Of a DNA stretch of 64,000 nucleotides, positions 12,437 to 33,039 are shown piece by piece. The DNA lies in the NCBI GenBank assembly GCA_963377175.1, contig CAUJNA010003238.1:307098-371097 (forward strand), written 5' to 3'. A model generated the notes under the pieces. It made no database searches. It was not told the DNA's origin and saw only the letters and a list, made by a program, of their open reading frames with translations. The first letter of the stretch is position 1, and each line of letters begins with the position of its first letter. Position numbers and translations under genes: made by a program. Source of the DNA: Effrenium voratum. Lineage: Eukaryota > Sar > Dinophyceae > Suessiales > Symbiodiniaceae.

Positions 12437-12441
12437 GATAT
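12437..12441. repeat. Target-site duplication, left (GATAT)
   Basis: GATAT abuts the first base of the left terminal repeat, and the same five bases follow the right terminal repeat at 33035-33039. This is the footprint of integrase-mediated insertion. Confidence 0.88.
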
Positions 12442-12932
12442 AGTTAGGGTAGGCCTTGCCCATCTTTTTATGGTACCCGAGTGTGACCCCCACCCTACGC
12501 AAGAACAGCATTTTTCAACCATTTTTCACTATTCAAATCGTCATCCTTATTCATTATGCATATTTCCACTCAAAACATTTCATAACAGTCTCAACCTCAA
12601 AATCCATCAAAAAAGTTACATTTTTCTCATTTTCTATTCTTGTCATTGTTAGGATGCTTGAGTGGAAATAGGAGTATAGGGTGGTTCATATGATATGGTT
12701 ATTGATGGTAGGATGCATGGGCAAGGTTAAGCTCATTCATAAAAAAAAAAATCAAAAAAATATTTCTCAAAAAAAATAATATTTTCAAAAAAAAAGTAAT
12801 TTTTCAAAAAATAAATTTTCAAAAATATTATTCCAAAAATTATGATAAATTATCTTACAATATTTTTATCATAAATTTTGTAGAAATATTATGGGCAAGG
12901 TTAGGTAGATAGAATTTTATAACTTAAGTTCA
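12442..12932 (+). repeat. Left terminal inverted repeat
   Basis: Matches the reverse complement of 32533-33034 apart from small indels, such as an 8-base difference near 12638 and A-run length changes. It contains ATGGGCAAGG three times (12455-12463 inverted, 12717-12726, 12891-12900). The inner end overlaps the last codons of the 12917-13459 gene. Open frames inside it are mirrored in the right copy and are not taken as genes. Confidence 0.93.
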
Positions 12933-13459
12933 GGATAATAATTCAATTGATGACCATTAAATTGTGTATATATCGTATCTCTTTCATGCATTATTTTAAA
13001 AATAATATTAATATCTCTCACTGTATTTTTCACATTAAACTTTTTTCCTTCAATATATGTTTTAATGTCTTCTTTTACATCAAACCCTTCCCTAAAATGA
13101 CAAGTCAACATCCACAATATACCTTTAATCATTTCATATTTTTTCTTACTGATTTTCAGAAATATTCTAACATAACTGTAATGTGGTATTTTATACACAG
13201 TTAAAAATATCAAAATGGCATCTTCAACATTTCTATTATTTCTTCTTTTCTTTATCAACAAACAATTGATTATAGCTTGATTATCTCTCCATTCCTGACA
13301 ATTTTCACATTCGCCTTTTTCATCCAAAGAATAATCAATAATATTATTAACTATTCCATTAGGTAAATTCAATTTGTATAATTCCATATTTTCCTTTTTG
13401 AAGTGGCAACAGTCGTAGCATTTCTTATTGATATAATTATTGATTTCGGTTTCAACCAT
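12917..13459 (-). CDS. Hypothetical protein with two Cys pairs (180 aa)
   Basis: Not recognised. The N-terminal part has CYDCC at residues 14-18 and CENC at 51-54, which could bind one zinc ion; the rest is Lys/Ile-rich and probably helical. It is the last gene at the left end, and its final codons run into the terminal repeat. It has its own copy of the long promoter motif 26 nt upstream of the ATG. Its position beside the polymerase-helicase suggests an early or replication-related role, which is inference only. Confidence 0.75.
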   Translation of the reverse strand: MVETEINNYINKKCYDCCHFKKENMELYKLNLPNGIVNNIIDYSLDEKGECENCQEWRDNQAIINCLLIKKRRNNRNVEDAILIFLTVYKIPHYSYVRIFLKISKKKYEMIKGILWMLTCHFREGFDVKEDIKTYIEGKKFNVKNTVRDINIIFKIMHERDTIYTQFNGHQLNYYPELKL

Positions 13460-13484
13460 TCCGATTATAATATATATAGTTTTT

Positions 13485-13515
13485 ATTTCTTTAAATACTT
13501 TTTACAAGAAATATT
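13485..13515 (-). promoter_or_regulatory. Replication-class promoter motif, copy 1
   Basis: On the minus strand it reads TTTCTTGTAAAAA then GTATTTAAAGAAAT, ending 26 nt before the ATG at 13459. Three other copies stand at the same distance range before other transcription units. Confidence 0.72.
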
Positions 13516-13536
13516 AAATTATTATTTAAATTATTA

Positions 13537-15141
13537 TCATTTACAACTACAATTGCACCTAACACAGTAAGGAATAATATTATTCAGTTCGTGCGATAAC
13601 TCGTTTGATTTACGTTGCGCTGTTAGATTTGTCATTATATTTCCATTTTTCATATCCATAGAAAAACCGCATCCGCAGTAATTGCATTGATTATTTATAT
13701 TGTCTAAAAACCACTGTGCATTTACATAACCTTCTTTAGGTATGGTTCTTTTTGCTTTCCTGTCCTGTTCCTTGTAGTTTAATATTTTTCTTTCAAAATA
13801 ACTTAAAATACATTTTTGATTAAATACATCATCAATATCTTTCGTATATTTATAAAATTTGACTTTGTTTAAATCTCTACACCTTGTGATTGCTGTCCAT
13901 ATCCATTCTGGATAATCCTTTACCAAAAAATGATTATAATCAAAAATTGTTATGGTGTCATCAATGCTACTACCTTGAGCAGAATGACATGTAGAGCAAT
14001 AAGCAAATATAAAATTGCTTCTTATTTTAGCAACTTCTACGGATTGTAAAATATCGGTTTTGACATTTTTTAATGTAAATATTCCATCGTTATCAATATG
14101 AACTATTTTATATTTGAAATTTACATTAAACACTGATGTTTTAGTTTTAGTATATTCCCTACATGTCAAAAATTCGCCTACTTCGTATTCATCTTTTCTA
14201 TTTTCTAATTTTCTAATTTCATTTGAGACATTTTTACAAGTTGTATTTAAAAATGCTATGTTGTTGTTAGAATTGCTTATGTCAGTTGTATATTCGAAAT
14301 ATTTTTCAATAACTTTCATAATAGGTAATTTATTTTCAAAAATATCAAATTTAATATTTCTTAGTTTATCCTTATCTTCCTGTGTGTTAAGTCTCTTACA
14401 TTCTTTTAACAAAATATTATATTCAAAAATGTTATCTATAATATTATCAGTATATAATTCATAGTCTCGAGTATTTGTTATCTCTTGAACTGGTTTTAAT
14501 TGCTTGGTGTCTCCCGTTGCTATTATAATTTTGTTGTGTTTATTCTGCTCTACAAATTGTTTTATTCTCCAATATATATTTAAATTACTGAAATAAATTT
14601 CATCAAATACGATTACATCAAATTCTGTAAAATCAAATGGTTCTAATTTTGCATCGCCGTAGTTTATTCCAAAAAACTTATTTATAGTCATTGCTTCACC
14701 TTCGAATGCCTGTAATAATTTATTAGTAGGACAAATAAATATTACCTTATATTTTTTATCAACCATTTTTTGACATATATATGATTTTCCTGTGCCCGGT
14801 AGTTCGCCCCTGATCATAATAGGGTTATTCTGTTTAACAATCTCTATAATGTTATCAGTGTCGTATTCATCTTTAATATCAATAGTTTTACTTTCATGAA
14901 CTGGTATTTTTATTAGATCATTCTTAACAACTTCATATTTTACAGTAGGAAGATTAATTTCATTGTCTCGTCCAGAAACTTTCCAACCTCCTATATCATT
15001 ATGAAATTCTAATAATTGCTTTGCTTTCTCTACATTGTATGAATCAATTACAAAAGCATCGGTTTTCACACTATATACATTAATATCGTTGACTATTAAT
15101 TTGTAAATGTCTTGGTTCATTTTAAAATTATGATGTTGCAT
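13537..15141 (-). CDS. Polymerase C-terminal part + SF1 helicase + Cys-rich tail (534 aa)
   Basis: This frame continues the polymerase frame of 15148-17625 after one TAA codon and two further codons. Residues 20-30 read NVYSVKTDAF, which fits polymerase motif C of a divergent family-B-like polymerase (the KTD replacing DTD). The superfamily-1 helicase follows: Walker A GELPGTGKS (112-120), Walker B VIVFDE (176-181), motif III GDTKQLKPV (210-218), a later CHSAQGSS segment, and TAITRCR near the end, as in Pif1/RecD-type enzymes. The C-terminus has CNYCGCG and CVRCNC, a possible zinc-binding HNH-like module. It probably unwinds DNA for replication of the element. ATG 15141 is the first Met after the stop. 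Translating from it alone would give a helicase with an orphan motif C. Confidence 0.85.
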   Translation of the reverse strand: MQHHNFKMNQDIYKLIVNDINVYSVKTDAFVIDSYNVEKAKQLLEFHNDIGGWKVSGRDNEINLPTVKYEVVKNDLIKIPVHESKTIDIKDEYDTDNIIEIVKQNNPIMIRGELPGTGKSYICQKMVDKKYKVIFICPTNKLLQAFEGEAMTINKFFGINYGDAKLEPFDFTEFDVIVFDEIYFSNLNIYWRIKQFVEQNKHNKIIIATGDTKQLKPVQEITNTRDYELYTDNIIDNIFEYNILLKECKRLNTQEDKDKLRNIKFDIFENKLPIMKVIEKYFEYTTDISNSNNNIAFLNTTCKNVSNEIRKLENRKDEYEVGEFLTCREYTKTKTSVFNVNFKYKIVHIDNDGIFTLKNVKTDILQSVEVAKIRSNFIFAYCSTCHSAQGSSIDDTITIFDYNHFLVKDYPEWIWTAITRCRDLNKVKFYKYTKDIDDVFNQKCILSYFERKILNYKEQDRKAKRTIPKEGYVNAQWFLDNINNQCNYCGCGFSMDMKNGNIMTNLTAQRKSNELSHELNNIIPYCVRCNCSCK

Positions 15142-15147
15142 GAGTAG

Positions 15148-17625
15148 TTATTTAATATATCTATAGCCGTTTCTTAATACTGCTTTATCCTTTAATTTTA
15201 ATATATAATATGATGCTTTTATATTTTCTCTATCTATTTCATATTTATACTCTTCTTCATACTCCTCTTTACACTCTTCGTCTTCTGTACCTATATGTGA
15301 TAACCTATGAATTTTGCCTTCTATCTGTGATAACTTATGAATTTTGCCTCCGTATTCTGTTTGATAATGGATTGCTTCATCAATACTCTTAAACAAAATG
15401 CTTTGATGCGCGGTAGCCTCTCCCTTCTCTAATAATCCAAAATTGACATTTGCTATTAATTTTTTACTTAGTATATCATCATCATCATCATCATCATCTA
15501 TAGTAGTTTTCCAAAGTTCATTAACCATATCCTTATAGTTTGTTTTATGAATAAACGAAGGTTGTTTATAATATAATACTTTAATGTTATATTGATTAAT
15601 AAACTTTTTTAAAAACTTACCATAAACTAAATTATATTTTTTATTAAACATTAAGCCCTCTTTATTCCCCAGTAACGTTTTTGTCATTATGAATTCAACT
15701 TCTTCTTTTGATTTAAATTTTAAACTTTCCTCCAAAAGATGTTTACGTTTAATACGTTCCATACTGTATTTATTTGGTATATTCGGATAGTTAACTTCAA
15801 TATAATATAATGTTAGATCGTGGAGTTCATCAATATTAATTGCATCATTGTATTCTTTCCAATTGTCAAACTGATTAAAAACTGGTATTTCAGTAATATC
15901 TATGAAACCGTTTGTAAATGCCTTATTTTCATCGATTTCAGTTTTACGCATTAAATTAAATTTATCCCATAATAATCCCGAAGGTGCTACAGTCCTTGTT
16001 TCGTTTAATATTTTTATATCAATGTCATTATAAAAAGATTTGTGAGATAAAATAAATAAAGATTTATTAAAATTAAACATTGCTTTATTCATATTGTTGT
16101 ACATAGTTTCATTATTTGCTGCGATCCAACCATCGCTGGATGATTTAATTAAATTTTGAGTCTTTATGATATATGTTATCTTGTTAAATTTGACTCTAAT
16201 TTCATCAATAATACCTGTGTATTTAATTCTGGGTTCATATCCAATATTTATCAACTGGAAAAATATTTCTGCCAAATCATTATCTTCGGGTACTAAATAT
16301 ACTTCCCTTGTTTTATCATCAGTTTTTATTTTGAGTATATCATCTATACATTTAATCATTTTGTATTGCGGGGGTTCCTCTCTTTCATTTATATAATAAT
16401 CAGTGTGTGCCTTTATAGTGGGTAGTTTTGATATTACTTGTTTTTGTTGTATTTTGCTTAAATCGTGGTTTAATGTATAAATATGGTTATTTTTCACCAT
16501 AGCGTAAAATGTTTTAATATGACGGTTTCTTATTTTTGGGTTATATTTGTAAATAAGTTCATTTACAAAATTAAAAATTCTAACTTGAATATTAAACTGC
16601 TTAAATACTGCTTCCATTTCTTGAATGGTTGCTCCTACTTCCTTAAAATTATTCCTACCTATGATTTCAATAATTTTATCTCTGGTTAGTCTGTTGCGGG
16701 TTCTTTCATTCATGATTGTATCACTGTAAAAATCAGTTAATGAATTTATCCAACATTCATTTTTAACATAATTGCCTTGTTTAATTGCCTTTCGTATAGT
16801 GTCCTCACTCATTTTCAAATGTGTGTATATATATGCATGGAAAATGGATACGTTAGATGAATCTCTTAAATTTTCTGCTAATATATCAAACTTTTTACCT
16901 GATTTATTCATCATCTCCACGGACAATATTTTTATACCATCTAAGCCATATTCCTGATTTTCTAAATGTTCCATGTGTTTGGCAAACTCCTCGTCGTGTT
17001 TCATTATTTTTATTATTTTTGTAAATTCTGGATTTATTTGTTCCGTCTCTCCAAAATCAGTATCCATCGAAACACCTGTTTTTTTCAAAATTCTCTTGCG
17101 GATAAATTCCTTAGGAAATTCTTCTCCTATGTCAACTGTAGCACTTAATCGCTCATAGTTCCAAAGATAATAATACTCATCAAATGCTTTAAAGGCGGGT
17201 TTTGATTTCATTTTCTTTTTATCACCAATTATATAAAGGTCATACATAACAAAATATGTATTTTTTTTTCTTGCTTTATTCCCCCTATATTCATTATCTT
17301 TGATTTTTCTATATTTTCCACCACCTCCCTCTCCCTTTTTATTATTTGCCCTTGCTTCTGCCATTCTTTCATTTAATGGTTTTGTATCCTTGATCTTTTT
17401 GATATTGTCTTTGTATTTTTGAAATGCTTTGTCATAAACCTTTTTATCAGTAGATGTTAAACCTTTGATATAATTTTCTGCAGTTGCTACATTTGATAAC
17501 TTCCTTTCAGTATAAAGTTTAACGATCTCATCAACCCTTTTTTTAGTTGCATTATTTGCGTTCTGTGTTGAATTTCTTTTGAGTTTATTTAACTCGTTGA
17601 TATTACGTTGTAAAAACTTACTCAT
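15148..17625 (-). CDS. DNA polymerase N-terminal and palm part, ends at in-frame TAA (825 aa)
   Basis: Divergent palm-domain (family-B-like) DNA polymerase of the kind fused to SF1 helicases in virus-like elements. The first ~120 residues are basic and helical. Residues about 285-400 contain ECWINSL and later KTFYAMVKNNHIYTLNHDL, a domain common in front of such polymerases. A candidate motif A is DITEIPVFNQFDNW; the likely motif B is KKLIANVNFGLL. The frame stops at TAA (15148-15150) after NGYRYIK, between motifs B and C, and resumes at once in the same frame. An Asp8 run (CAT repeats on plus, about 15477-15500) and a duplicated GKIH.LS segment lie near the end. The long promoter motif is 31 nt upstream. 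The family assignment rests on motif order and the attached helicase. Confidence 0.78.
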   Translation of the reverse strand: MSKFLQRNINELNKLKRNSTQNANNATKKRVDEIVKLYTERKLSNVATAENYIKGLTSTDKKVYDKAFQKYKDNIKKIKDTKPLNERMAEARANNKKGEGGGGKYRKIKDNEYRGNKARKKNTYFVMYDLYIIGDKKKMKSKPAFKAFDEYYYLWNYERLSATVDIGEEFPKEFIRKRILKKTGVSMDTDFGETEQINPEFTKIIKIMKHDEEFAKHMEHLENQEYGLDGIKILSVEMMNKSGKKFDILAENLRDSSNVSIFHAYIYTHLKMSEDTIRKAIKQGNYVKNECWINSLTDFYSDTIMNERTRNRLTRDKIIEIIGRNNFKEVGATIQEMEAVFKQFNIQVRIFNFVNELIYKYNPKIRNRHIKTFYAMVKNNHIYTLNHDLSKIQQKQVISKLPTIKAHTDYYINEREEPPQYKMIKCIDDILKIKTDDKTREVYLVPEDNDLAEIFFQLINIGYEPRIKYTGIIDEIRVKFNKITYIIKTQNLIKSSSDGWIAANNETMYNNMNKAMFNFNKSLFILSHKSFYNDIDIKILNETRTVAPSGLLWDKFNLMRKTEIDENKAFTNGFIDITEIPVFNQFDNWKEYNDAINIDELHDLTLYYIEVNYPNIPNKYSMERIKRKHLLEESLKFKSKEEVEFIMTKTLLGNKEGLMFNKKYNLVYGKFLKKFINQYNIKVLYYKQPSFIHKTNYKDMVNELWKTTIDDDDDDDDILSKKLIANVNFGLLEKGEATAHQSILFKSIDEAIHYQTEYGGKIHKLSQIEGKIHRLSHIGTEDEECKEEYEEEYKYEIDRENIKASYYILKLKDKAVLRNGYRYIK

Positions 17626-17655
17626 ACTATAATCTATATATTTATATTATAAAAA

Positions 17656-17690
17656 TATTTCTTTAAATAACTTTTTTACAAGAAAACTTT
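17656..17690 (-). promoter_or_regulatory. Replication-class promoter motif, copy 2
   Basis: Copy with TCTTGTAAAAAAG then TTATTTAAAGAAATA on the minus strand, 31 nt before the polymerase ATG at 17625. Confidence 0.72.
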
Positions 17691-17716
17691 TTATAATAAA
17701 AATTCTATATACTTTT

Positions 17717-18634
17717 TTAAACTTTTAAAATTTCAAATCTTAAGAATGGTCGTGTGTTATGTTCCAAATAAAAATAAGTTTGACCTAACTTTTTTTCAAT
17801 CCTTTCAACTTTATATTTCGTAGGTAACCAATTGCTACTCCTTTCTTTTTCAGTTATTGCTTTCTTTCTGTAAATCTTCACTTCGTTACCTATGTTAATT
17901 TCAGGGTATTTACGGGTTCTGGTTGCTTCGGTTGCCATTTTCATTTTTACTTTATAATTGTTTTTCTCCTTCAATGCTTCCGCTGGTGTCATTCCTATGC
18001 TTGAATGTTCCATTTTATTATTATAAGTTATTAATATTTCAAAATTATAATCTATCCATTGTATATTTTCCTTTCCTTCTTTTTCATCTTTTTCAACCCT
18101 TTTATATAACATATCTTTGTAGGTGCGTATAAAACGTTCTGCAAAATTAGGATGTCCTCTTGTGCGGTATAATTCTATTCCTTCTTCTTTGAAATAATCT
18201 TCAACTGTTTTATTATATAAACTGCCTTCCTCGTCGCTATAAATAATTTCTGGTTTGCCTTTCATTTTCTGCATTCCTTCCATTACTCCCGCTAATATGT
18301 CAGGCGGTTGTTTTGATTTAATAGGTATTACTGTAGAATATCTGGTAAATATATCAATTAAAACCATCCCTACTTTAAATTTTTGATTGGGTATGTCATT
18401 AATAAAAAATAAATCTAATTGAAATTCAAAGTATGGATGTGGAGCAATAAATGAATTTTTGCCTCTTAATTGCTTCTTCTGTTCTATGTTCTTTTGAAAC
18501 CATTCTTTAACATCATTTAAGGTTATGCTTTGTTCCTTTTGTTTAGCATCCTTATAGGTTGTTGTGATACTTCCGTATCCTGATCTATCATAATAGGTTT
18601 TACTAATTATATCATTTTTATTAATATTTGCCAT
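17717..18634 (-). CDS. rve-family DDE integrase (305 aa)
   Basis: Retroviral/Polinton-type integrase that would insert the linear viral DNA and create the GATAT duplication. The RNase-H-like core carries Asp74 (FQLDLFF), Asp134 (IYSDEEGS) and Glu166 (HPNFAERFIRTYK), the expected D, D, E order, with 31 residues between the last two. A C-terminal SH3-like region (GNEVKIYRKK ... WLPTKYKVERI) follows. I do not see a clear N-terminal HHCC zinc module. It lies 22 nt after the 118-aa gene and has no promoter motif of its own, so it is probably the third gene of the unit that starts at 19249. Confidence 0.92.
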   Translation of the reverse strand: MANINKNDIISKTYYDRSGYGSITTTYKDAKQKEQSITLNDVKEWFQKNIEQKKQLRGKNSFIAPHPYFEFQLDLFFINDIPNQKFKVGMVLIDIFTRYSTVIPIKSKQPPDILAGVMEGMQKMKGKPEIIYSDEEGSLYNKTVEDYFKEEGIELYRTRGHPNFAERFIRTYKDMLYKRVEKDEKEGKENIQWIDYNFEILITYNNKMEHSSIGMTPAEALKEKNNYKVKMKMATEATRTRKYPEINIGNEVKIYRKKAITEKERSSNWLPTKYKVERIEKKLGQTYFYLEHNTRPFLRFEILKV

Positions 18635-18655
18635 ATTAATAAAGGTGATATTATT

Positions 18656-19012
18656 TTAAAATATTGCTTGTTGGTCGATCTTCCAGAAATAAAATTCCTT
18701 GAAATCATCAATGCTATGTATATTACAATGTCTAAAAGGTATGATAGTTACACCTAAATAATATCTTAATATTAATTTAATACTTGTTTTAACTAAATAC
18801 CACGAGCGCCATTGAAGTTTGTTTTTGTTTATTTCTTCTTGAATTGTTCTACTAAACCCATTCCATACAAAATATTCTTTGTAAGCATTCTCAATATACA
18901 TTACATTATAATATTTTTTAATAAGATGACAAGTTCTTCTATTTACTAATTGCTTCAATGTTTTTAAATCATCCTTAACAAAATATTCAGGTAATAAAGA
19001 TTTACTAACCAT
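18656..19012 (-). CDS. Hypothetical protein (118 aa)
   Basis: Not recognised. Basic and aromatic-rich, with a Trp/Tyr-rich centre (QWRSWYLVKT) and no clear membrane span. It sits 10 nt after the 75-aa zinc protein and 22 nt before the integrase, and is likely co-transcribed with both. A role with the integrase is conceivable from context alone. Confidence 0.65.
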   Translation of the reverse strand: MVSKSLLPEYFVKDDLKTLKQLVNRRTCHLIKKYYNVMYIENAYKEYFVWNGFSRTIQEEINKNKLQWRSWYLVKTSIKLILRYYLGVTIIPFRHCNIHSIDDFKEFYFWKIDQQAIF

Positions 19013-19021
19013 TCTTTTAAA

Positions 19022-19249
19022 TTATTTGATGGCGGTAGGAAATGGAAATAATTTAACCAAAATATATAATTGTTGTTGTTCAGGGTGTAGTGTTTTAAAT
19101 TCATTGTCATCTAATATACTATGAAATTTACAACAGTTTTTACATTGTAAAAACTTACTTATATTGATACAATGTTCGCTTAATATTTTTTTATTGAATG
19201 TTTTAACTTTGTTCTTTTCAGTTCTACAGTCCTCACACATACTCACCAT
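19022..19249 (-). CDS. Small Cys-rich protein (75 aa)
   Basis: CEDC at residues 5-8, a Cys near 27 and CKNCC near 36-40 suggest one small zinc-binding site like that of the 180-aa protein at the left end. First gene of the three-gene unit leading to the integrase. The promoter motif lies only 17 nt upstream of the ATG. Function unknown. Confidence 0.68.
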   Translation of the reverse strand: MVSMCEDCRTEKNKVKTFNKKILSEHCINISKFLQCKNCCKFHSILDDNEFKTLHPEQQQLYILVKLFPFPTAIK

Positions 19250-19264
19250 ATAATAGCATTATAA

Positions 19265-19300: not shown

Positions 19301-19343
19301 TTATAGTAAAATTTCTATATATTTTTATATTTTTCCTAAATTT

Positions 19344-19569: not shown

Positions 19570-19572
19570 TAT

Positions 19573-25295: not shown

Positions 25296-26879
25296 ATGGA
25301 TAATATAATCGCCGAATCAGAAACTACAATGATTAACTCGCTAAATTTTGGACTTCCAGAAACAGCACAATATATCACAGACCGACGACACGTTAATTAT
25401 TTTCCATCAGGTAGCAATGTCTATAATCCAAATGCAGGAAACAAAAATATTAGATTTCATATAACAGGTGAAGACAACACATATATTGATTTATCAAGTA
25501 TTCGTTTATTTGCAAATCTTCAAAACACCGACGGAACACGAAGTCATTTTTTACGACCGTTTGGTAATTTATCATCCTTCTTCAGTCGTTACAGATGCAC
25601 TGTTGGAGGTCAGCAAGTTCAGGATATTATTGAATATAATAGACATTGCGAATTGTATAATTCTTTTAAAAGTCAAGATGCCAGAGATATGGACGATTTA
25701 GAGGGGGGCGCCAATCCTCGTTGGGATGATGACTGGCGACACACATATGCTACTGGATTGGCAGAATTCATTGATGTCAATACACGAACCGATCCCACTG
25801 CCGACCCTGAGGCAGTTGCAGTTTCAACTACACAAGACCATAACAATTGGGGAGACTTAACATCGCGATATACTCGCCATTCAGTAGCAGGAATCCCCGG
25901 CAATAATGGTTATATGAGATTAGGACATAAACCAGTATGCGGACTGTTAGAAAGCAATTATTATTTACCTCTTCGTTATGCTCCACTTGAACTGGAATTT
26001 ACAATTGTATCAGATGAACATATACCAGTAGTTACGCCTTTTACCGTAACTGATGTCAACACTCAAAATGATGCCAAAGGTTATTATTTCACAACTGGAG
26101 ACACCTCAACACAGTGGGAATTAAATAATGTAATCATACGAGCCGAGGTAATACAATTGGACAACACGGTCAACAATAATATAGTAAAACATTTGTTAGA
26201 GGGTCAAAGTTTGAAATTAGTATTTCCAATGTATCACACTATGACGCAATCATTCAACATGGCAGGAACTGAAATTAATATGAACATTGTTAAATCCGCT
26301 TCTAAATTAAATGGTTGTTTCATCACATTGTATCGCACACCAAGAGCAGGTGTAGATACTGACAATAATAACTACTACAGACACGATAATTATATTTACA
26401 AGCGATGGAATTACTTTTACAATCCTATGATTAATTCAAGAATCTTTGACGGTCCTGATCCAGATGGCGCTGATCGTGAGCGTTTCCAAGGTAAAGGTTT
26501 TCAAGATAAAGATTTAAATTTAACGTGGCAATTACAAATTAACAATAAAAAATATCCAGAGTTTGAATGTCAATCAATGGCAGAAACTGCATATTATTTA
26601 AGACGAACATTACACTATTTGAACCCTGACCAAGACGCATTTAGCATTTCATATAAACGCTACAGAGAAGACAAGTTCGTTATTGGGATTTCATTTGAAA
26701 AGATGGCGGACACTAATTTTACTGGACAGAATACTAAAATGGGAGGTTTACTCGTTTTTAAATTGAAAGGAAGTAACAGAGCACTGACAGATAATGAAAA
26801 TGTGCGAGAATTATTTGTGCATATGATTTCGGAGTCTGTTCTGGAATTAAGGGAAAGCGGATCTGTGCTCTATGATTAA
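25296..26879 (+). CDS. Major capsid protein, double jelly-roll (527 aa)
   Basis: Main shell protein of the icosahedral capsid. The start (NFGLPETAQYITDRRHVNYF then PSGSNVYNP) and FFSRYRCTVGGQQVQDI with IEYNRH match the pattern of PLV/Polinton capsid proteins. The length is typical for two jelly-roll domains. No frameshift or stop is seen, and the codon use is as AT-rich as its neighbours. Preceded by a TCTAA motif. The gene is intact, unlike several neighbours. Confidence 0.92.
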   Translation: MDNIIAESETTMINSLNFGLPETAQYITDRRHVNYFPSGSNVYNPNAGNKNIRFHITGEDNTYIDLSSIRLFANLQNTDGTRSHFLRPFGNLSSFFSRYRCTVGGQQVQDIIEYNRHCELYNSFKSQDARDMDDLEGGANPRWDDDWRHTYATGLAEFIDVNTRTDPTADPEAVAVSTTQDHNNWGDLTSRYTRHSVAGIPGNNGYMRLGHKPVCGLLESNYYLPLRYAPLELEFTIVSDEHIPVVTPFTVTDVNTQNDAKGYYFTTGDTSTQWELNNVIIRAEVIQLDNTVNNNIVKHLLEGQSLKLVFPMYHTMTQSFNMAGTEINMNIVKSASKLNGCFITLYRTPRAGVDTDNNNYYRHDNYIYKRWNYFYNPMINSRIFDGPDPDGADRERFQGKGFQDKDLNLTWQLQINNKKYPEFECQSMAETAYYLRRTLHYLNPDQDAFSISYKRYREDKFVIGISFEKMADTNFTGQNTKMGGLLVFKLKGSNRALTDNENVRELFVHMISESVLELRESGSVLYD

Positions 26880-26887
26880 AATTAAAT

Positions 26888-26891
26888 TCTA
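26888..26891 (+). promoter_or_regulatory. TCTA-type motif before 26905 gene
   Basis: TCTA in AT-rich DNA, 13 nt before ATG 26905. Supports that upstream ATG as the real start. Confidence 0.5.
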
Positions 26892-26904
26892 TGATAAATA
26901 TATA

Positions 26905-27223
26905 ATGTACAAATTTCATAAACGAAATAATTTAAAAAAATAAAGGTAAAGTATTCTTACAATCCTCACAAATTAAATATAGTCCATTTGATCTAAAAGA
27001 TAACGAGTATCTAAAACACCTACATGAACAAATGAAATTAAGAAACTCACAAGAAGCATCGGTAGCATTTAGAAAACACATTCAAGAAGGACACGCCAGA
27101 GCAAATTATCAAAATGAATTAGACAGATTAACAATGGAACTACGCCGACCAAATCTACCACATTCAACAAAGGAGCATTTAAAAAAACGGATCGATGAGT
27201 TGGACAAATTAACATTTACTTAA
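26905..27223 (+). CDS. Hypothetical small protein, frameshifted near its start
   Basis: The downstream frame is open from just after 26935 and contains KVFLQSSQIKYSPFDLKDNE before the internal ATG at 27032, followed by a helical part (ELDRLTMELRRPNLPHSTK). ATG 26905 (MYKFHKRNN) enters this frame only if one A is removed from the A7 run at 26934-26940. As written, initiation at 27032 gives 63 residues; the repaired-frame product would be about 105. Function unknown. The motif spacing favours the upstream start. Confidence 0.58.
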
Positions 27224-27238
27224 AATATATTGATATAG

Positions 27239-27321
27239 ATTAATAATATTTTTCACAAAAATATTATTAACAATAACATCTTATTATTAATAATATTTTT
27301 CACAAAAATATTATTAACAAT
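27239..27321. repeat. Two 36-bp direct repeats, each a hairpin
   Basis: Copies at 27239-27274 and 27286-27321. Each contains AATAATATTTTT, loop CAC, AAAAATATTATT. They fill the gap between two plus-strand genes and could end the upstream transcript. Confidence 0.8.
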
Positions 27322-27325
27322 ATTT

Positions 27326-27330
27326 TCTAA
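27326..27330 (+). promoter_or_regulatory. TCTA-type motif before 352-aa gene
   Basis: TCTAA, 16 nt before the ATG at 27347. Confidence 0.6.
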
Positions 27331-27346
27331 TTAATATTATATCAAT

Positions 27347-28405
27347 ATGGCAACTACAGCAAGTTTAGAACTGATAAACCCATATGCAAAATTTGGATTG
27401 AAACGACGACCTACCTATGAAGAAATTGCTAACTTAATAGGCGAGAACGAACAATTAACAGGAAAACTACCTAACAGAGATGCTACATTTTTTAAATCAA
27501 GTCCTCAGGGTAGTTTTTTTGACGGGAGCGACCATTTAGAATTATTGAAAGACCAACAAATGAGAATATTAGACAGGCAGATGAGAGAGATAATGATGAA
27601 ACAAGAATCGCACCGAAACGGACACACATATGCACTTCATAGAAGAAACACGGAAGCAGAAGCACCATCACCGGAACAACAAACAGAGCCAATGGTTCAG
27701 CGTGATACAGAAAGTATGCAGGAAGCATCATTAACAGCACAGTTAAACGAGATGGCAAGAAAGGACGCCGAGGCGAAACAAAAGAGAAATCAAGCGTTTG
27801 CAAATGTTTTAGCAAAGGGAAGCGAGGCACTAATCAATACCCTTGGATCAAGCAAATTTTACACTAAAAAGATACAGGATATCGCTAGATCATCAACAGA
27901 CACAGGAGTAGAAGCAGAACAAGAAGCAGAAGTAGTAGAAGCAGAACAAGAAGCAGAAGTAGTAGAAAAGGCAGAAGAGGAAAAGCGAACAGTTTCCAAT
28001 TTGAGCCCAGTAGATGCAAAAATATATGATCGTTTAAAAGAACGGCATTCTGATGAAACGTGGGATGTTATCAAACCAGCATTAGAAATATTGACAAGCG
28101 TTAAACATAGAACCCCGCGTGAATTTGCTAATAACACATCCGAAATGAGTAATGTAGTTAGGAGTATGTATGATTTAGGTTTGGTGTCAGAAAGAGAGTT
28201 TGACGGCTATTTTAAAATAATACAGTTGCTTGATAATGCCAAAGGAAAAGACCGCAAGGATGCAATTAGGGTAGATTTAGGAAAATATTACGGCAACGTG
28301 ATTTATTACAGATACATAGCAAAGCAAGCACAAGTAGAAGGGGCAAGAAGCAAGTCACAAGCAAAGCCTCCCAGTCGTGCGAGCGGTTCCAGTGGCTATC
28401 CATGA
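27347..28405 (+). CDS. Hypothetical virion-type protein (352 aa)
   Basis: Not recognised by motif. Residues 40-100 are charged and helical; the middle is rich in Glu/Gln/Ala and holds two 9-residue repeats EAEQEAEVV (27-bp DNA duplication near 27910-27965). The C-terminal ~130 residues look folded (NLSPVDAKIYDRLKERH..., SMYDLGLVSEREFDGY). Its place in the capsid cluster and its TCTA promoter suggest a structural or assembly protein, by inference. Confidence 0.72.
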   Translation: MATTASLELINPYAKFGLKRRPTYEEIANLIGENEQLTGKLPNRDATFFKSSPQGSFFDGSDHLELLKDQQMRILDRQMREIMMKQESHRNGHTYALHRRNTEAEAPSPEQQTEPMVQRDTESMQEASLTAQLNEMARKDAEAKQKRNQAFANVLAKGSEALINTLGSSKFYTKKIQDIARSSTDTGVEAEQEAEVVEAEQEAEVVEKAEEEKRTVSNLSPVDAKIYDRLKERHSDETWDVIKPALEILTSVKHRTPREFANNTSEMSNVVRSMYDLGLVSEREFDGYFKIIQLLDNAKGKDRKDAIRVDLGKYYGNVIYYRYIAKQAQVEGARSKSQAKPPSRASGSSGYP

Positions 28406-28414
28406 ATATTAATA

Positions 28415-28419
28415 TCTAA
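28415..28419 (+). promoter_or_regulatory. TCTA-type motif before 271-aa gene
   Basis: TCTAA, 12 nt before the ATG at 28432. Confidence 0.58.
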
Positions 28420-28431
28420 ATACAATTAATA

Positions 28432-29247
28432 ATGATAATATTAACTAAAAATATACTGAAAAGAAAGAAGCAGAAGTTCAATGATAATTATGATCACGAC
28501 GACAGTTTTTCAATACATAACCTAACAAAACCAAACACACCAACAACAACACAACCACCGAAAATGATGAAAAAAGGCATACCGAGAGAATTTATTGACA
28601 TTGCAACCAATACAGATACAATCGCCACAGAAACCAGAGAGACTCAAGAAAAGTTATATAATGATGCAAATCAACAATTAAATATGACATTTGAAGCGTT
28701 TAAGGTAAAGGAAAACCAAGATAATATGTTTAAAATAATGCTTAAAAACTTTTGGCACAACACATACAAAAGACATGAACCAACAAGAACGCAAGCAACA
28801 CAAACACTGAAAAACCAACGCGACACAATGGTGTCAGCCTTTACTAAAATGCTCGACAACAACAAACCACCAGAACCACCGCCAAAGAAACCACCAGACG
28901 AGGAGGACAGCGATGAAGAAGAAAAAAGATTCAAACTGACAAAAATGATAGAAATAATGCTACACAACGGCGCTACAGTAGCAGATGTAATATTAAACTT
29001 ATCACATAGCGCAATTGCAACAACAATAAATATCGCAGATTTAGTTAATCAAATAACAGCAGGAAATGCACAAGGTAGCAGTAGTTCTTCTAATGAAATT
29101 GTTAGTGTTCATAGTTCTCCACCTATTACTGTTCATAGTTCTTCATCTGAAAGTCCAACAGAAATACCAGCACCAACTGAAGACGAAGAAGAAGAAGACG
29201 GAGAAGAAAAACAAAAATATATTTTTGAAAAATTAAAATCTAAATAA
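28432..29247 (+). CDS. Hypothetical Pro/acidic/Ser-rich protein (271 aa)
   Basis: Not recognised. Basic N-terminus (KNILKRKKQKF), central Pro-rich stretch PPEPPPKKPPDEEDSDEEE, a possible hydrophobic helix near 175-205 (IMLHNGATVADVILNLS), then a Ser-rich and acidic tail. The mix of disordered segments suggests an internal virion or scaffold protein, as inference. Located between other virion-type genes with a TCTA motif upstream. Confidence 0.68.
   Translation: MIILTKNILKRKKQKFNDNYDHDDSFSIHNLTKPNTPTTTQPPKMMKKGIPREFIDIATNTDTIATETRETQEKLYNDANQQLNMTFEAFKVKENQDNMFKIMLKNFWHNTYKRHEPTRTQATQTLKNQRDTMVSAFTKMLDNNKPPEPPPKKPPDEEDSDEEEKRFKLTKMIEIMLHNGATVADVILNLSHSAIATTINIADLVNQITAGNAQGSSSSSNEIVSVHSSPPITVHSSSSESPTEIPAPTEDEEEEDGEEKQKYIFEKLKSK
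29239..29243 (+). promoter_or_regulatory. TCTA-type motif before 68-aa gene
   Basis: TCTAA overlapping the last codons of the preceding gene, 15 nt before ATG 29259. Confidence 0.58.
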
Positions 29248-29258
29248 TATTATATATA

Positions 29259-29465
29259 ATGGGTGCTTTTCAAAGTAAAAATAATGAAAATAATAGTTTG
29301 GAAGACATTAAGGTTTTAAGTATAGATGAAAAAACACGAGCAGACACTTTAATTATTAAATCTCTTCAAGAATGTGTGGCACGAATTGAGAAACTAGAGA
29401 AAGAAAAATCTGACAAATTAATATATAAATTACCTGTTCAATTATGTAATTATTCATTATTTTAA
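29259..29465 (+). CDS. Small protein with myristoylation-type N-terminus (68 aa)
   Basis: The N-terminus MGAFQSKNN fits the eukaryotic N-myristoylation rule (Met-Gly-x-x-x-Ser). A helical, coiled-coil-like middle (CVARIEKLEKEKSDKLIY) follows. If acylated by the host enzyme it would bind membranes, which with the lipase hints at a membrane step in the life cycle. No family recognised. Confidence 0.62.
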   Translation: MGAFQSKNNENNSLEDIKVLSIDEKTRADTLIIKSLQECVARIEKLEKEKSDKLIYKLPVQLCNYSLF

Positions 29466-29468
29466 ATT

Positions 29469-29496
29469 AATAATATTAAAACAAATTAATATTATT
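29469..29496. terminator. Hairpin between convergent genes
   Basis: AATAATATTA, 8-base loop, TAATATTATT. Lies between the stop at 29465 (plus) and the stop at 29492 (minus), overlapping the latter, so it could end both transcripts. Confidence 0.48.
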
Positions 29497-29730
29497 GATT
29501 ACTATCATAATCTGTCATTTCACTATCGGGTAATTTCGTTGATGCATTGCTACATATATCATCTATTAAATCTTCTTCATCAACAAAATTATTTTGAAAT
29601 CTTAATAATTCCTCGTCTGTTGCCCTTCTTTTTTGAATACTTTATAAAGTTTATGTATCCAAGAATTAGTATGAAAATTATAATTACCTCTACGATAAAA
29701 TCCACCACATCTACATAGTTTCATTGACAT
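29492..29730 (-). pseudogene. Small gene with Cys pair, split by frameshift
   Basis: Minus-strand ATG 29730 opens MSMKLCRCGGFYRRGNYNF, with one CxC pair. The frame is then lost at an A6 run (T6 on plus, 29629-29634). The neighbouring frame continues at once as RRATDEELLRFQNN and an acidic tail (DEEDLIDDICSNAS...TDYDSNQ) to TAA 29492-29494. One missing A explains the break. About 80 residues in the repaired frame; function unknown. It fills what otherwise looks like an empty 295-bp gap next to the packaging ATPase. Confidence 0.6.
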
Positions 29731-29760
29731 ATTATTATATTATATTAAATTAGAATATCT

Positions 29761-30525
29761 TTATTCATCATTCGTAATTTGAAACGCCTGTTCAAATCTG
29801 ATATGAAACATTTTGTTAATGTCCTTAGCATTCATATTCACGTAGAAGAAACTATAAGGTGCGTCATTAACGGCTTGATGATACATATCTAATAATTGCT
29901 GTTTATCAACAATGGCGCTATTTTCTTCAATAAAACTCATTAACTCACTTGCATTTTTCAATCTAAAAATATATAATGAACTGGCATTTAAACGAATGAT
30001 AGGCGCTAACACATTATATTTTTGTGTTGAACAAATTACACTTACTGCATCGTGCCTACCTCTTGTAAATAATCCATGTAATAATTTACTATATCTAACA
30101 AATTTAGGATCGTCTGCGTGGTCATCTATAACGATTAATATTGAATGCAGTTTCTTTATCTTTTTAGATTTCATATAATTAATTATTTTCTTCTGTCTTT
30201 CAATTACATTTTCTAAATCACTTGGATTATAATTATCAAAATAAATTTGTTCTTTTTCATCATCCACGTGCAATTCATCCCTGATATATTTTTTAACTTC
30301 TGTAAAGGTTGGGTCATTATGAACGCTGGGGGAAAATATAAATATTCTTGCAAATGAATTTCTATAAACATTTAAGATAAGGTTCTGAACCAATACTGTT
30401 TTGCCACCTGTCGAAGAAGCAACTATAATACTTCTAAATGGTAATTTTGGCACGTGCTCATATTTAGATTGTTTGAATTCATATTCAGTTATGTTTATTG
30501 GCTTTATTATTGGAACATCTGACAT
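29761..30525 (-). CDS. Genome-packaging ATPase, FtsK/HerA type (254 aa)
   Basis: A32-like ATPase that pumps viral DNA into the capsid. Walker A is ASSTGGKT (residues 36-43) and Walker B is SILIVIDDHAD (Asp134-Asp135), with the STQKYNV sensor-like segment later; length is typical for the family. It is intact and encoded on the minus strand within the otherwise plus-strand right half. Its TCTAA motif is 22 nt upstream, shared space with the divergent 62-aa gene. Confidence 0.93.
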   Translation of the reverse strand: MSDVPIIKPINITEYEFKQSKYEHVPKLPFRSIIVASSTGGKTVLVQNLILNVYRNSFARIFIFSPSVHNDPTFTEVKKYIRDELHVDDEKEQIYFDNYNPSDLENVIERQKKIINYMKSKKIKKLHSILIVIDDHADDPKFVRYSKLLHGLFTRGRHDAVSVICSTQKYNVLAPIIRLNASSLYIFRLKNASELMSFIEENSAIVDKQQLLDMYHQAVNDAPYSFFYVNMNAKDINKMFHIRFEQAFQITNDE

Positions 30526-30547
30526 AATAAAATAATATTAAAGTTAT

Positions 30548-30552
30548 TTAGA
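30548..30552 (-). promoter_or_regulatory. TCTA-type motif before packaging ATPase
   Basis: TCTAA read on the minus strand (TTAGA on plus), 22 nt before the ATG at 30525. Confidence 0.6.
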
Positions 30553-30577
30553 AAATATTTTATATTGATTATTTTAT

Positions 30578-30766
30578 ATGAATAGAAGCTATTCAGATTA
30601 TATCAATATAATAGATGAAGTAGAGAATATAGAACAAGTTGTTATAACTGATAATAGATGTAAAAAAATATGTTATTTTATTTTAGAATTAATTAAGTTT
30701 GTGATACAATATATCAAAAATAAAAATGTAAATATTAATATAAATGGGAAGAAAGAAAAAGAATAA
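30578..30766 (+). CDS. Hypothetical protein with hydrophobic helix (62 aa)
   Basis: Not recognised. ICYFILELIKFVIQYI at about residues 31-46 could be a short membrane or amphipathic helix. It overlaps the start of the next gene by 23 nt in another frame. Read divergently from the ATPase. Confidence 0.5.
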   Translation: MNRSYSDYINIIDEVENIEQVVITDNRCKKICYFILELIKFVIQYIKNKNVNININGKKEKE

Positions 30767-31103
30767 GACTGAACCAGTTGTTTCTTCAACTGATGAAGAC
30801 AAAGAAGAAGTTGTTAAAGAAACATCAGTTATTGAGTTTGCTTGTCCAATGTGTAAAAGAATATTAGAAATGAAGAATGAATTAGAAATACAAAAGAAAG
30901 GAAACTGTAAATGTTCGTGTATTCCAGCCAGTTTCAAAATAAGTAGAAATGATAAGAAAATGAATATTGATAAAACTAAAGACAGTATCAACTTAGAAAC
31001 AGATGTTCATAATATTGCTATACGCTTTGGGAGGGGAGTTACTCCATCCGATAATGGTGATAAGGAAACTCAGGAAACTATTAAACAAATGATGAAAAAT
31101 TAG
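30744..31103 (+). CDS. Zinc-ribbon-like small protein (119 aa)
   Basis: CPMC at about residues 34-37 and CKCSC near 55-59 form a plausible four-Cys zinc ribbon, flanked by a basic N-terminus (MGRKKKNK) and an acidic linker. It might act in transcription, but no family was recognised. It has no own TCTA motif, so translation may depend on the overlapping upstream gene's transcript. Confidence 0.62.
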   Translation: MGRKKKNKTEPVVSSTDEDKEEVVKETSVIEFACPMCKRILEMKNELEIQKKGNCKCSCIPASFKISRNDKKMNIDKTKDSINLETDVHNIAIRFGRGVTPSDNGDKETQETIKQMMKN

Positions 31104-31181
31104 TATTTAAAGAGTAGATTTAACATAATTTAAACATTTAGTTTTAAAAGTTTTATTTTATAATATAATATATATATTTAC

Positions 31182-31454
31182 ATGGATGAAGGATTAGAAA
31201 AGATGGTTAAAAAACTGAACAAGGTTTTAGAACAGAATAAGAATATTTTAGAAATCTTGCAAGAAATGGAAAAGAAGAAACCGTTAACAAACAGTTATCA
31301 AAGTAAAGAAGTAGATCGAACCAATGGTGAATATAAAAATAAAAGAAATATTTATTTAAACAAACTTAATAACAAAGAAATTAAAGAACCGAAGGCTTCA
31401 ACTATGACATTTTATCAAATTGACTATGACGAGGAAACGCAACTTTATTCATAA
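31182..31454 (+). CDS. Hypothetical coiled-coil protein (90 aa)
   Basis: The N-terminal 35 residues (MVKKLNKVLEQNKNILEIL) form a clear heptad-type helix; the rest is Lys/Asn-rich. No recognised family. A GTATTTAAAG string 68 nt upstream resembles the core of the replication-class promoter motif. The stop codon lies inside a 9-bp hairpin. Confidence 0.6.
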   Translation: MDEGLEKMVKKLNKVLEQNKNILEILQEMEKKKPLTNSYQSKEVDRTNGEYKNKRNIYLNKLNNKEIKEPKASTMTFYQIDYDEETQLYS

Positions 31455-31460
31455 AGTTGC
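31439..31460 (+). terminator. Hairpin containing the stop of the 90-aa gene
   Basis: GCAACTTTA, loop TTCA, TAAAGTTGC. A second hairpin follows at 31473-31495 (AAAACTAAAC, loop ATA, GTTTAGTTTT). Confidence 0.55.
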
Positions 31461-31534
31461 ATTTACTCATTGAAAACTAAACATAGTTTAGTTTTTAACG
31501 AGGAAACAGGGATTTTTATTCATAGATAATATTA

Positions 31535-31539
31535 TCTAA
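31535..31539 (+). promoter_or_regulatory. TCTA-type motif before methyltransferase
   Basis: TCTAA, 12 nt before the ATG at 31552. Confidence 0.58.
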
Positions 31540-31551
31540 ATATCTTTAATA

Positions 31552-32166
31552 ATGAACTTATTAGAGATGTTTAGTGGGACAGGCAGTGTTGGACTTGTTG
31601 CAAAAGCAATGGGTTTCAATGTTATTTCATTGGATTTGAAAAATGCTGATATAAATACTGATATTTTGAAATGGGATTATAAACAATTTGATAGGAACCA
31701 TTTTGATTTTATTTGGAGTAGTCCCCCATGCACTGAATATAGTGTAGCAAAAACTAGGGGAATAAGAAACATTGAATATGCTAATAGTATAGTTTTAAAA
31801 ACTATTGAAATTATCAAATATTTTAATCCTAAATATTTTGTAATCGAAAATCCACAAACTGGATTATTAAAAAATCAGGAGTTTATGGATGAGTTTGATT
31901 TTAAAGATGTAGATTATTGTAAATATGGAATGCCTTACAGAAAACGCACTAGGCTATGGAATAACATTACAACTTGGAAACCTAAACATTTATGTAAAAA
32001 GGATTGTGGCAACATCAGGAATAATAAACATATTGAAACAGCACAACGGCTACCATCGGGCACTAAGGAAAAATGGGGAGACAATCCAATAATACATAAA
32101 CAGGAAGACCTATATAAAATACCTAGTAGTTTAATCAGTGAAATTTTGGTGAGTTTGGTTGGTTAA
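31552..32166 (+). CDS. Short C5 cytosine DNA methyltransferase (204 aa)
   Basis: Transfers a methyl group from S-adenosylmethionine to cytosine C5. Motif I is LLEMFSGTGSVG (3-14), motif IV SSPPCTEYS carries the catalytic Cys, motif VI is FVIENPQ, and a YGMPYRKRTRLW segment follows, like motif VIII. At 204 residues it is much shorter than usual and lacks room for a normal target-recognition domain, so its specificity may be low or supplied elsewhere. Likely role: marking or protecting viral DNA. The start follows a TCTAA motif. Confidence 0.85.
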   Translation: MNLLEMFSGTGSVGLVAKAMGFNVISLDLKNADINTDILKWDYKQFDRNHFDFIWSSPPCTEYSVAKTRGIRNIEYANSIVLKTIEIIKYFNPKYFVIENPQTGLLKNQEFMDEFDFKDVDYCKYGMPYRKRTRLWNNITTWKPKHLCKKDCGNIRNNKHIETAQRLPSGTKEKWGDNPIIHKQEDLYKIPSSLISEILVSLVG

Positions 32167-32197
32167 ATAATTTGAGGGTGAAAAAGCCCCCTTTTTA

Positions 32198-32286
32198 ACA
32201 TACACCGCTTTTGGTGTATGCGTACACCGCTTTTGGTGTATGCGTACACCGCTTTTGGTGTATGCGTACACCGCTTTTGGTGTATG
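32198..32286. repeat. Tandem hairpin repeat (ATACACC..GGTGTAT)
   Basis: Four copies of the 22-base unit GTACACCGCTTTTGGTGTAT plus GC. Each is a hairpin with stem ATACACC/GGTGTAT and loop GCTTTT. Follows the methyltransferase stop by about 30 nt. Structural analogue, with unrelated sequence, of the hairpin array at 19344-19520. Confidence 0.88.
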
Positions 32287-32532
32287 GTTTTTGTCCCTTT
32301 TGGACAGCCCCAAATGCAAGGTTTGTGCTCTTTCAGGGAGACAATCAGCAGATGTAGATTACATATTTGAAGATTTATTAACTGATAATTATTTTAATCC
32401 TTAATACTTAATTGCAATATAATTATAACATGTAAAATCTTATATGTTATAATTATACTATACTTATGGTTTGTAAAGATTGAAATACTTTAATTTTCCT
32501 TAATTTGGTTATCTCTTTCAAAGTGCGTTGTT
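32287..32532 (+). other. Gap with a possible decayed ORF end
   Basis: One plus-strand frame from about 32297 to TAA 32402-32404 reads LDSPKCKVCALSG, then ADVDYIFEDLLTDNYFNP, which looks protein-like but has no start. The rest up to the terminal repeat is AT-rich without features. Confidence 0.3.
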
Positions 32533-33034
32533 TGAACTTAAGTTATAAAATTCTATCTACCTAACCTTGCCCATAATATTTCTACAAAATTTATGATAAA
32601 AATATTGTAAGATAATTTATCATAATTTTTGGAATAATATTTTTGAAAATTTATTTTTTTGAAAAATTACTTTTTTTTTTGAAAATATTATTTTTTTTGA
32701 GAAATATTATTTTTGCTTTTTTTTTGTATGAATGAGCTTAACCTTGCCCATGCATCCTACCATCAATAACCATATCATATGAACCACCCTATACTCCTAT
32801 TTCCACTCAAGCATCCTAACAATGACAAGAATGATGGAATAGAAAATGAGAAAAATGTAACTTTTTTGATGGATTTTGAGGTTGAGACTGTTATGAAATG
32901 TTTTGAGTGGAAATATGCATAATGAATAAGGATGACGATTTGAATAGTGAAAAATGGTTGAAAAATGCTGTTCTTGCGTAGGGTGGGGGTCACACTCGGG
33001 TACCATAAAAAGATGGGCAAGGCCTACCCTAACT
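32533..33034 (-). repeat. Right terminal inverted repeat
   Basis: Inverted copy of 12442-12932 with small indels; again carries three ATGGGCAAGG sites. Outer end ...CCCTAACT, followed directly by GATAT. Confidence 0.93.
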
Positions 33035-33039
33035 GATAT
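33035..33039. repeat. Target-site duplication, right (GATAT)
   Basis: Matches 12437-12441 exactly. A sixth base (T) could be counted on one side only if the terminal base of the repeat is reassigned. Confidence 0.88.

What the first reader, a model, noticed from the sequence alone, without database searches (positions are those of the whole stretch)
12437..33039. Near-complete polinton-like virus sitting in an intron of a dinoflagellate formate dehydrogenase gene
The terminal repeats, GATAT duplication and in-frame FDH exons 4 and 5 on either side show a clean insertion into one intron. The 20.6-kb element holds a full capsid/packaging/integrase set. The host gene keeps all visible catalytic segments, so the intron may still be spliced despite growing from about 1.3 to 21.9 kb.
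Basis: partly seen in the sequence, partly recalled or inferred. Interest (0 to 1): 0.9.

Follow-up and report, generated by a model that had tools for sequence, protein, structure and literature searches.

The report
Integrated virus inside algal gene intron
A 20.6-kb DNA virus genome lies integrated inside one intron of a formate dehydrogenase gene in a dinoflagellate whose genome holds hundreds of related copies; such viruses are already known from dinoflagellates, but here the insertion, its target-site rule and the host gene can be read in unusual detail.

Summary
An element at 12442-33034 (20,593 bp), with inverted ends of about 490-500 bp and a 5-bp GATAT duplication, splits intron 4 of an NAD-dependent formate dehydrogenase (FDH) gene on the minus strand. 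The host is a dinoflagellate (251 exact spliced-leader copies). Fourteen FDH exons join without a stop; the intron grew from 1,297 to 21,895 bp, inside a host repeat of about 170 bp. The element carries a packaging ATPase, rve-type integrase, superfamily-1 helicase, methylase and a capsid-like protein whose low-confidence model best matches a Tetraselmis viridis virus S1 protein: a polinton-like virus (PLV). The genome holds 42 terminus pairs of this family and 306 capsid-motif sites. 38 of 41 pairs read have perfect 5-bp duplications, in a two-fold symmetric target (four G/C positions fit in 29 of 38 sites, 2.7 expected). Splicing, particles and an empty allele remain unshown.

The parts
12437..12441 (.). 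left copy of the GATAT target-site duplication
33035..33039 (.). right copy of the GATAT target-site duplication
12442..12932 (+). left terminal inverted repeat (first 198 nt identical to the right arm)
32533..33034 (-). right terminal inverted repeat
12917..13459 (-). ORF of 180 aa, function unknown
13537..15141 (-). superfamily-1 helicase (Viral_helicase1, above cut-off) with an endonuclease-VII-like C-terminal segment; same frame as the next ORF
15148..17625 (-). 825-aa ORF, candidate Tlr-type polymerase part; ends at an in-frame stop just before the helicase ORF, whereas 15 of 15 other copies examined are open across this point
   Evidence: the polymerase label is inference without profile support
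17717..18634 (-). rve-type integrase
   Evidence: rve E 2.5e-4, below cut-off; IS481 model E 7.6e-11, below cut-off; 36% identity to the L003 integrase, which passes the rve cut-off
20109..22628 (-). 839-aa ORF, possibly a fibre
   Evidence: residues 52-137 match L003 near 14931-15164; function inferred
22785..23639 (-). putative minor capsid (penton) protein
   Evidence: 27% identity to the L003 counterpart in the same place; no profile match
23743..24522 (+). lipase/esterase-like protein
   Evidence: weak Pfam matches below cut-off, L003 homologue 31%
25296..26879 (+). major capsid protein, probably double jelly-roll
   Evidence: L003 homologue; Foldseek best match a Tetraselmis viridis virus S1 protein, E 4.8e-10; PBCV-1, Faustovirus, Sputnik capsids; model of low confidence
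29761..30525 (-). A32-type packaging ATPase
   Evidence: Pox_A32 7.4e-12, above cut-off; PHROG terminase family 1.6e-12; 51% identity to L003
31552..32166 (+). C5 cytosine methylase (204 aa)
   Evidence: DNA_methylase 4.4e-10, above cut-off
33822..33896 (-). host FDH exon 4 (GC donor)
11834..11926 (-). host FDH exon 5 (AG|G acceptor)
11927..33821 (-). host FDH intron 4 with the element inside, 21,895 bp
12351..12441 (+). left part of a dispersed host repeat with inverted ends (about 170 bp) into which the element is inserted
   Evidence: outer limits approximate
33040..33117 (+). right part of the same host repeat
   Evidence: outer limits approximate

Best explanation
An endogenous polinton-like virus of a dinoflagellate. 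Shown: a 20.6-kb DNA with long inverted ends was joined to host DNA with a 5-bp staggered cut, inside a host repeat in intron 4 of an FDH gene; the same kind of event, with the same symmetric target preference, occurred at 37 other sites read. Inferred: the element's own rve integrase (or that of a sister copy), acting as a symmetric multimer in the manner of retroviral integrases, made the cuts; the copies spread either as virus particles reinfecting the cell line or within the nucleus. The FDH gene can survive because the insertion is intronic and the exons still join in frame, with a second FDH gene as reserve. As assembled, this copy cannot make its full-length replication protein.
For: Inverted ends and duplication. 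Two FDH halves collinear with bacterial FDH and with the host's second FDH gene. Gene content and synteny with metagenomic contig L003. Capsid model: BFVD rank 1 is a protein of Tetraselmis viridis virus S1, which PMC4642659 counts among PLVs. Family: 100 termini, 42 pairs, 306 capsid-motif sites against 1 in the control. 38 of 41 perfect 5-bp duplications. Target signature: G/C at -4, -3, +7, +8 in 29 of 38 sites, 2.7 expected, 4 of 38 at each of two control positions in the flanks. 9 of 38 other scored matches of the host repeat run across the insertion point without the element. Host identity: 251 spliced-leader copies, control 0.
Against: No empty allele at this very locus in the assembly; the related repeat copies have gaps of about 8-17 nt beside the insertion point, so they show the repeat continuing, not a single GATAT. 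No reads, RNA or virions were available. The capsid model is of low confidence (mean pLDDT 37.3; the tool warns against such models). The integrase is below Pfam's and NCBIfam's curated cut-offs. The minor capsid protein has no profile support. No relative in the phage collection, and in 8 IMG/VR scans one contig with the capsid module, L003 (with 51, 53, 61 with 64). 3 of 41 copies lack a duplication.
Confidence: 0.94

Rival explanations
1. A Maverick/Polinton transposon that moves only as a transposon and forms no particles.
For: Long inverted ends, rve-type integrase, hundreds of copies in one genome. All 15 other copies examined have breaks in the replication gene, so many copies may be passively kept.
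Against: Capsid-like, ATPase, lipase-like and putative minor capsid genes form a module syntenic with a metagenomic contig; no maturation protease among Pfam matches to E 0.1 for 17 ORFs, several of which match nothing; the best capsid model match is to a PLV protein.
Confidence: 0.2
2. Assembly artefact: viral DNA joined to the FDH gene by mistake.
For: No reads were available; no empty allele in the assembly.
Against: A perfect 5-bp duplication here and at 37 other junction pairs, a symmetric target rule, a host repeat and the FDH gene each continuing on the far side.
Confidence: 0.02
3. The insertion has inactivated this FDH copy, which persists as a recent pseudogene beside the second FDH gene.
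For: A second FDH gene with short introns exists; a 21.9-kb AT-rich intron with viral ORFs may splice badly.
Against: All 14 exons are open in the hand-set model; dN/dS between the two copies is 0.08 over 269 codons, though most of that time may precede the insertion.
Confidence: 0.3

Closest known systems
Polinton-like viruses of the TVS1/PgVV kind (Yutin et al. 2015, PMC4642659; passages read)
   Same: Capsid proteins plus packaging ATPase without protease; lipase and Dcm methylase genes; Tlr-like superfamily-1 helicase; best match of the capsid model is a TVS1 protein.
   Different: Carries an rve-type integrase, which that paper found in a single PLV; endogenous in hundreds of copies.
Dinoflagellate endogenous PLVs ('Dino group'; Polarella glacialis with 2,535 capsid genes; Bellas et al. 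2023, PMC10120064; passages read)
   Same: Same host group, high copy number.
   Different: Membership of the Dino group untested (no sequences at hand); here duplications, target rule and host gene are resolved.
OmPLV of Oxyrrhis marina (Haro et al. 2025, PMC12721341; outline, Results part 1 of 2, sections 15 and 20 read)
   Same: Endogenous dinoflagellate PLV, about 25 kb, low G+C, replication gene fragmented in most copies.
   Different: OmPLV has a tyrosine recombinase, no target duplications and an N-terminal helicase; here rve-type integrase, 5-bp duplications, helicase C-terminal.
Cryptophyte PLV clusters C2/C3 (PMC12220804; passages read)
   Same: rve integrase with duplications in more than half of the elements (57 of 97 and 179 of 305 there).
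   Different: 6 bp given as typical for rve integrases there (5-6 bp for PLVs in general); 5 bp here.
Tlr1 of Tetrahymena (as described in PMC12721341 and PMC4642659)
   Same: An N-terminal part followed in one frame by a superfamily-1 helicase and a nuclease domain.
   Different: Endonuclease-VII-like rather than GIY-YIG nuclease; the polymerase identity of the N-terminal part is not confirmed by any profile here.

Membership tests
Polinton-like virus | double jelly-roll major capsid protein | tested here: met
   Caveat: low-confidence model (pLDDT 37.3), TM-scores at most 0.31 among matches at E 0.001 or less. All 23 PDB rows at that level are PBCV-1, Faustovirus, Sputnik, vaccinia D13 or Orf virus capsid/scaffold entries; of 11 BFVD rows, 4 are named major capsid proteins, the rest are LO7 (3), unnamed or otherwise named, one as a BTB protein
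Polinton-like virus | minor capsid (penton) protein | tested here: inconclusive
   only synteny and 27% identity to L003
Polinton-like virus | A32-like packaging ATPase | tested here: met
   Pox_A32 45.7 bits, cut-off 22.8
Polinton-like virus | long terminal inverted repeats, 14-40 kb | tested here: met
   size range as given in the abstract of PMC12220804 (listing)
Polinton-like virus | no maturation protease | tested here: inconclusive
   none among Pfam matches to E 0.1 for 17 ORFs; several ORFs have no match at all
Polinton/Maverick sensu stricto | protein-primed polymerase with exonuclease | tested here: inconclusive
   the 825-aa ORF has no polymerase profile; the L003 relative has instead a 1286-aa protein with a YTDTDS motif (polymerase reading of the motif recalled)
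Polinton/Maverick sensu stricto | rve integrase with target duplication | tested here: met
   integrase, below curated cut-offs; 5 bp, not 6
Tlr-type polymerase-helicase fusion | both parts in one reading frame | tested here: inconclusive
   open across the joint in 15 of 15 other copies examined, interrupted in the window; polymerase identity not shown
Dinoflagellate host | trans-spliced leader genes | tested here: met
   251 exact copies with a tandem array on C722, control 0 (the leader sequence is recalled)
'Dino group' capsid cluster of Bellas et al. | capsid network membership | not testable with these tools
   no reference sequences at hand; protein database off

The most novel reading that the evidence does not exclude
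This virus family integrates through an rve integrase complex with two-fold symmetry that reads DNA shape: a 5-bp cut with an A/T-rich middle, flanked by G/C pairs 11 bp apart (about one helical turn; SSN-T-[S T W A S]-A-NSS), like retroviral intasomes. It so scatters viral genomes through dinoflagellate DNA, genes included, without seeking any particular sequence, and genes tolerate 20-kb virus-filled introns.
Probability: 0.5. Interest if true: 0.6.

Novelty: new member of a known kind. Interest (0 to 1): 0.48.

Why it matters
It gives a fully readable case of a virus genome sitting in a working-looking gene of a dinoflagellate, with a target rule derived from 38 separate insertions that can be tested with purified integrase, and a natural test of whether dinoflagellates splice a 21.9-kb intron that contains a virus.

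Tried and rejected
Single-sequence structure of the capsid protein: useless (pLDDT 31.5); the two-sequence alignment improved mainly the first jelly roll. PDB by sequence: nothing for the capsid protein or the 825-aa ORF. IMG/VR: 8 scans gave one contig with the capsid module, L003; of the 56 stretches only that contig matched, and of the 6 one, L064, matches residues 254-463 of the 825-aa ORF at 36% but shows no ATG-started ORF of 150 aa there, not pursued. Phage collection: no match. Rfam and tRNA scans of the window: nothing.

Idea that the replication gene decays while capsid genes are kept: suggested (77 of 82 scored capsid genes without stops, but these are the best 82 of 4,095 candidates); rejected when 11 capsid genes of the same 15 copies, taken without regard to frame, gave 5 of 11 unbroken (the other 4 copies are in the list without stops, so 9 of 15). 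Breaks per 1000 codons were 1.2 (capsid), 0.9 (integrase, 11 of 15 copies unbroken), 1.6 (helicase) and 4.2 (825-aa part, inflated by overlapping alignments); alignments under 60% identity were dropped before this count. 16 of 37 frameshifts lie near homopolymers and may be assembly errors; no control for that was made.

Idea that the element prefers the host repeat: none of the other 40 sites read contains it. Spliced-leader relict in the window: one 15-mer with 1 mismatch, 0.33 expected by chance, and none for the full leader: not used. Other host genes: no Pfam domain in one + frame (44000-56000) and two - frames (38500-50500); other frames not searched. Not examined: one of the 42 terminus pairs (C3439, 11.8 kb) and 16 unpaired termini. 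Whether other copies lie in introns was not tested.
Full report
What is there. The window lies in a eukaryotic assembly of 1,155,904,702 bases in 3,699 contigs (C3056:307098-371097). Between 12442 and 33034 is a 20,593-bp element of low G+C bounded by inverted ends of about 490-500 bp, the outer 198 nt identical. GATAT flanks it directly on both sides.

Host gene. Two bacterial NAD-dependent FDH proteins (from L001, L002) match the flanks exon by exon on the minus strand; the pieces cover residues 2 to 399 of the Methylocystis protein in order, with the element between exons 4 and 5. With boundaries set by hand, 14 exons join to 388 residues without a stop; donors are GC in 8, GA in 5, GT in 1 of 14, and acceptors AG followed by G in 13 of 13. 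I chose the boundaries with AG|G in mind, so this regularity is partly built in; the open frame is not. A further C-terminal exon lies near 1617-1547, and the start of the coding region before 38274 was not found. The intron is 21,895 bp, of which 1,297 bp are host.

Host identity. The dinoflagellate spliced leader (recalled sequence) occurs exactly 251 times, with a tandem array on C722, reversed control 0. With the GC/GA donors this makes the host a dinoflagellate; the species was not determined.

Second FDH gene. C458 holds another FDH gene, 93% identical in amino acids over 269 of 388 codons, dS 0.52, dN/dS 0.08; two alignment segments under 75% identity, which run through introns, were dropped. 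It reads through the position of the virus-bearing intron without an intron and has one some 6-7 residues upstream, so introns have moved between these copies. The join predicted for the window (FEK|AKKLKL) matches the uninterrupted FEKAKNLKL of the second gene, which supports the splice model.

Insertion point. The joined host flanks match the window's two halves at 100%, and no other place in the assembly has the same empty site. They also match a dispersed repeat with inverted ends (GTGCCATGGTC / GACCATGGCAC in the window) at 38 other scored places (40 of 129 candidates were scored); 9 of the 38 run across the insertion point without the element, at 69-73% identity. The three crossing alignments that I printed have gaps of about 8-17 nt beside the insertion point, so they show the repeat continuing, not the exact pre-insertion base sequence. 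The element is thus nested: virus in a short host repeat in an intron. None of the other 40 sites read contains this repeat.

Element genes. Above curated cut-offs: A32 packaging ATPase, Viral_helicase1 helicase, C5 methylase. Weaker: rve-type integrase, lipase, endonuclease-VII-like end of the helicase. One IMG/VR contig, L003, is a syntenic relative: ATPase 51%, integrase 36%, capsid 30%, lipase 31%, minor capsid 27%, the homologous capsid-module genes in the same order and orientation; its replication gene differs. The capsid protein has no sequence match in PDB. A two-sequence model, low in confidence, finds an uncharacterized 616-aa protein of Tetraselmis viridis virus S1 first in BFVD (E 4.8e-10); all 23 PDB rows at E 0.001 or less are PBCV-1, Faustovirus, Sputnik, D13 or Orf virus capsid/scaffold entries, PRD1 and mavirus follow at E 0.006-0.04, mixed with an unrelated protein, BcsB. 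TM-scores of the matches at E 0.001 or less are at most 0.31, so this is support for the fold, not proof.

Interrupted gene. The 825-aa ORF and the helicase ORF are in one frame separated by an in-frame stop. In 15 of 15 other copies one open frame spans this point, so the two ORFs are most likely one gene and the stop is not shared by those copies; each of the 15 has a frameshift or stop elsewhere in the gene, judged against the window's frames. The 15 are those of the 42 pairs whose orientation I could read from capsid hits. That the first part is a Tlr-type polymerase is inferred from position and recalled motifs; no profile supports it.

Family and target rule. The 23-base terminus (up to 2 mismatches) is found 100 times (control 0), making 42 pairs 11.8-23.6 kb apart and 16 single ends (pairing by hand). 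A 24-base capsid motif, up to 3 mismatches, occurs 306 times (control 1); 82 of 4,095 capsid candidates were scored, all 82 at least 94% identical. Ends of 40 further pairs were read. With the window, 38 of 41 have perfect 5-bp duplications; the two ends within a copy are 92-100% identical over the first 400 nt, gaps left out, 99.5% in the window. In the 38 sites, G or C stands at -4, -3, +7 and +8 in 34, 36, 38 and 34; the middle three positions of the duplication are A or T in 29, 31 and 29, and T at -1 and +1 mirrors A at +5 and +3. All four outer positions fit in 29 of 38, 2.7 expected from flank G+C of 0.517, 4 of 38 at each of two control positions. The positions were picked after looking at 35; the single-position p-values of 1e-6 to 1e-11 survive that. 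No two sites share similarity across the insertion point, so the insertions are separate events. Such symmetry is what a symmetric integrase complex would leave.

Known or new. Dinoflagellate PLVs are in print: 2,535 capsid genes in Polarella (PMC10120064, passages), OmPLV in Oxyrrhis (PMC12721341), Maverick elements enriched at domain boundaries in Breviolum (PMC11071213, passages), PLV contigs from Karenia brevis incubations (PMC13037468, passages). rve-bearing PLVs with target duplications are known from cryptophytes (PMC12220804, passages). Short transposon-derived introns are known from Symbiodinium (PMC9860276, passages). I found no paper on a target-site preference of PLV integrases (search: 15 of 223 papers listed, the three PLV papers among them with 0 uses of the phrase) nor on a PLV within a named dinoflagellate gene intron (searches, listings, plus the passages named). 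These searches cover open papers and fixed phrases, so this is weak evidence of novelty. I file it as a new member of a known kind with good anatomy.

Noticed in passing
27239-27332: Two near-identical AT-rich hairpins between the capsid gene (ends 26879) and the next ORF (starts 27347); a 22-bp hairpin repeat (four copies) at 32201-32308 lies after the methylase gene, and a 23-bp GGGGAT...ATCCCC repeat at about 19351-19528. They look like transcript-end hairpins.
   Followed up: no
13512, 19909, 19295 (minus strand): A motif taken from 13512 recurs with 4 mismatches at 19909, in both cases shortly before an ORF start, and with 7 at 19295; a related stretch lies before the 825-aa ORF (17650-17733). 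Possibly a promoter.
   Followed up: partly
19140-19343: Resembles the 5' end and upstream region of the 825-aa ORF (17603-17733), as if duplicated.
   Followed up: no
L157 (C458:39000-45500) against 2181-38274: Two FDH genes with 93% identical protein (269 codons compared) have introns at different positions in at least one place, pointing to recent intron gain, loss or sliding.
   Followed up: partly
33959-34231: Repeats containing CACAAAATGG...CCTTCAA...CCAAAAGGAGGGG in FDH intron 3.
   Followed up: no
C722:109307-122977 of the host genome: Tandem array of spliced-leader sequences.
   Followed up: no
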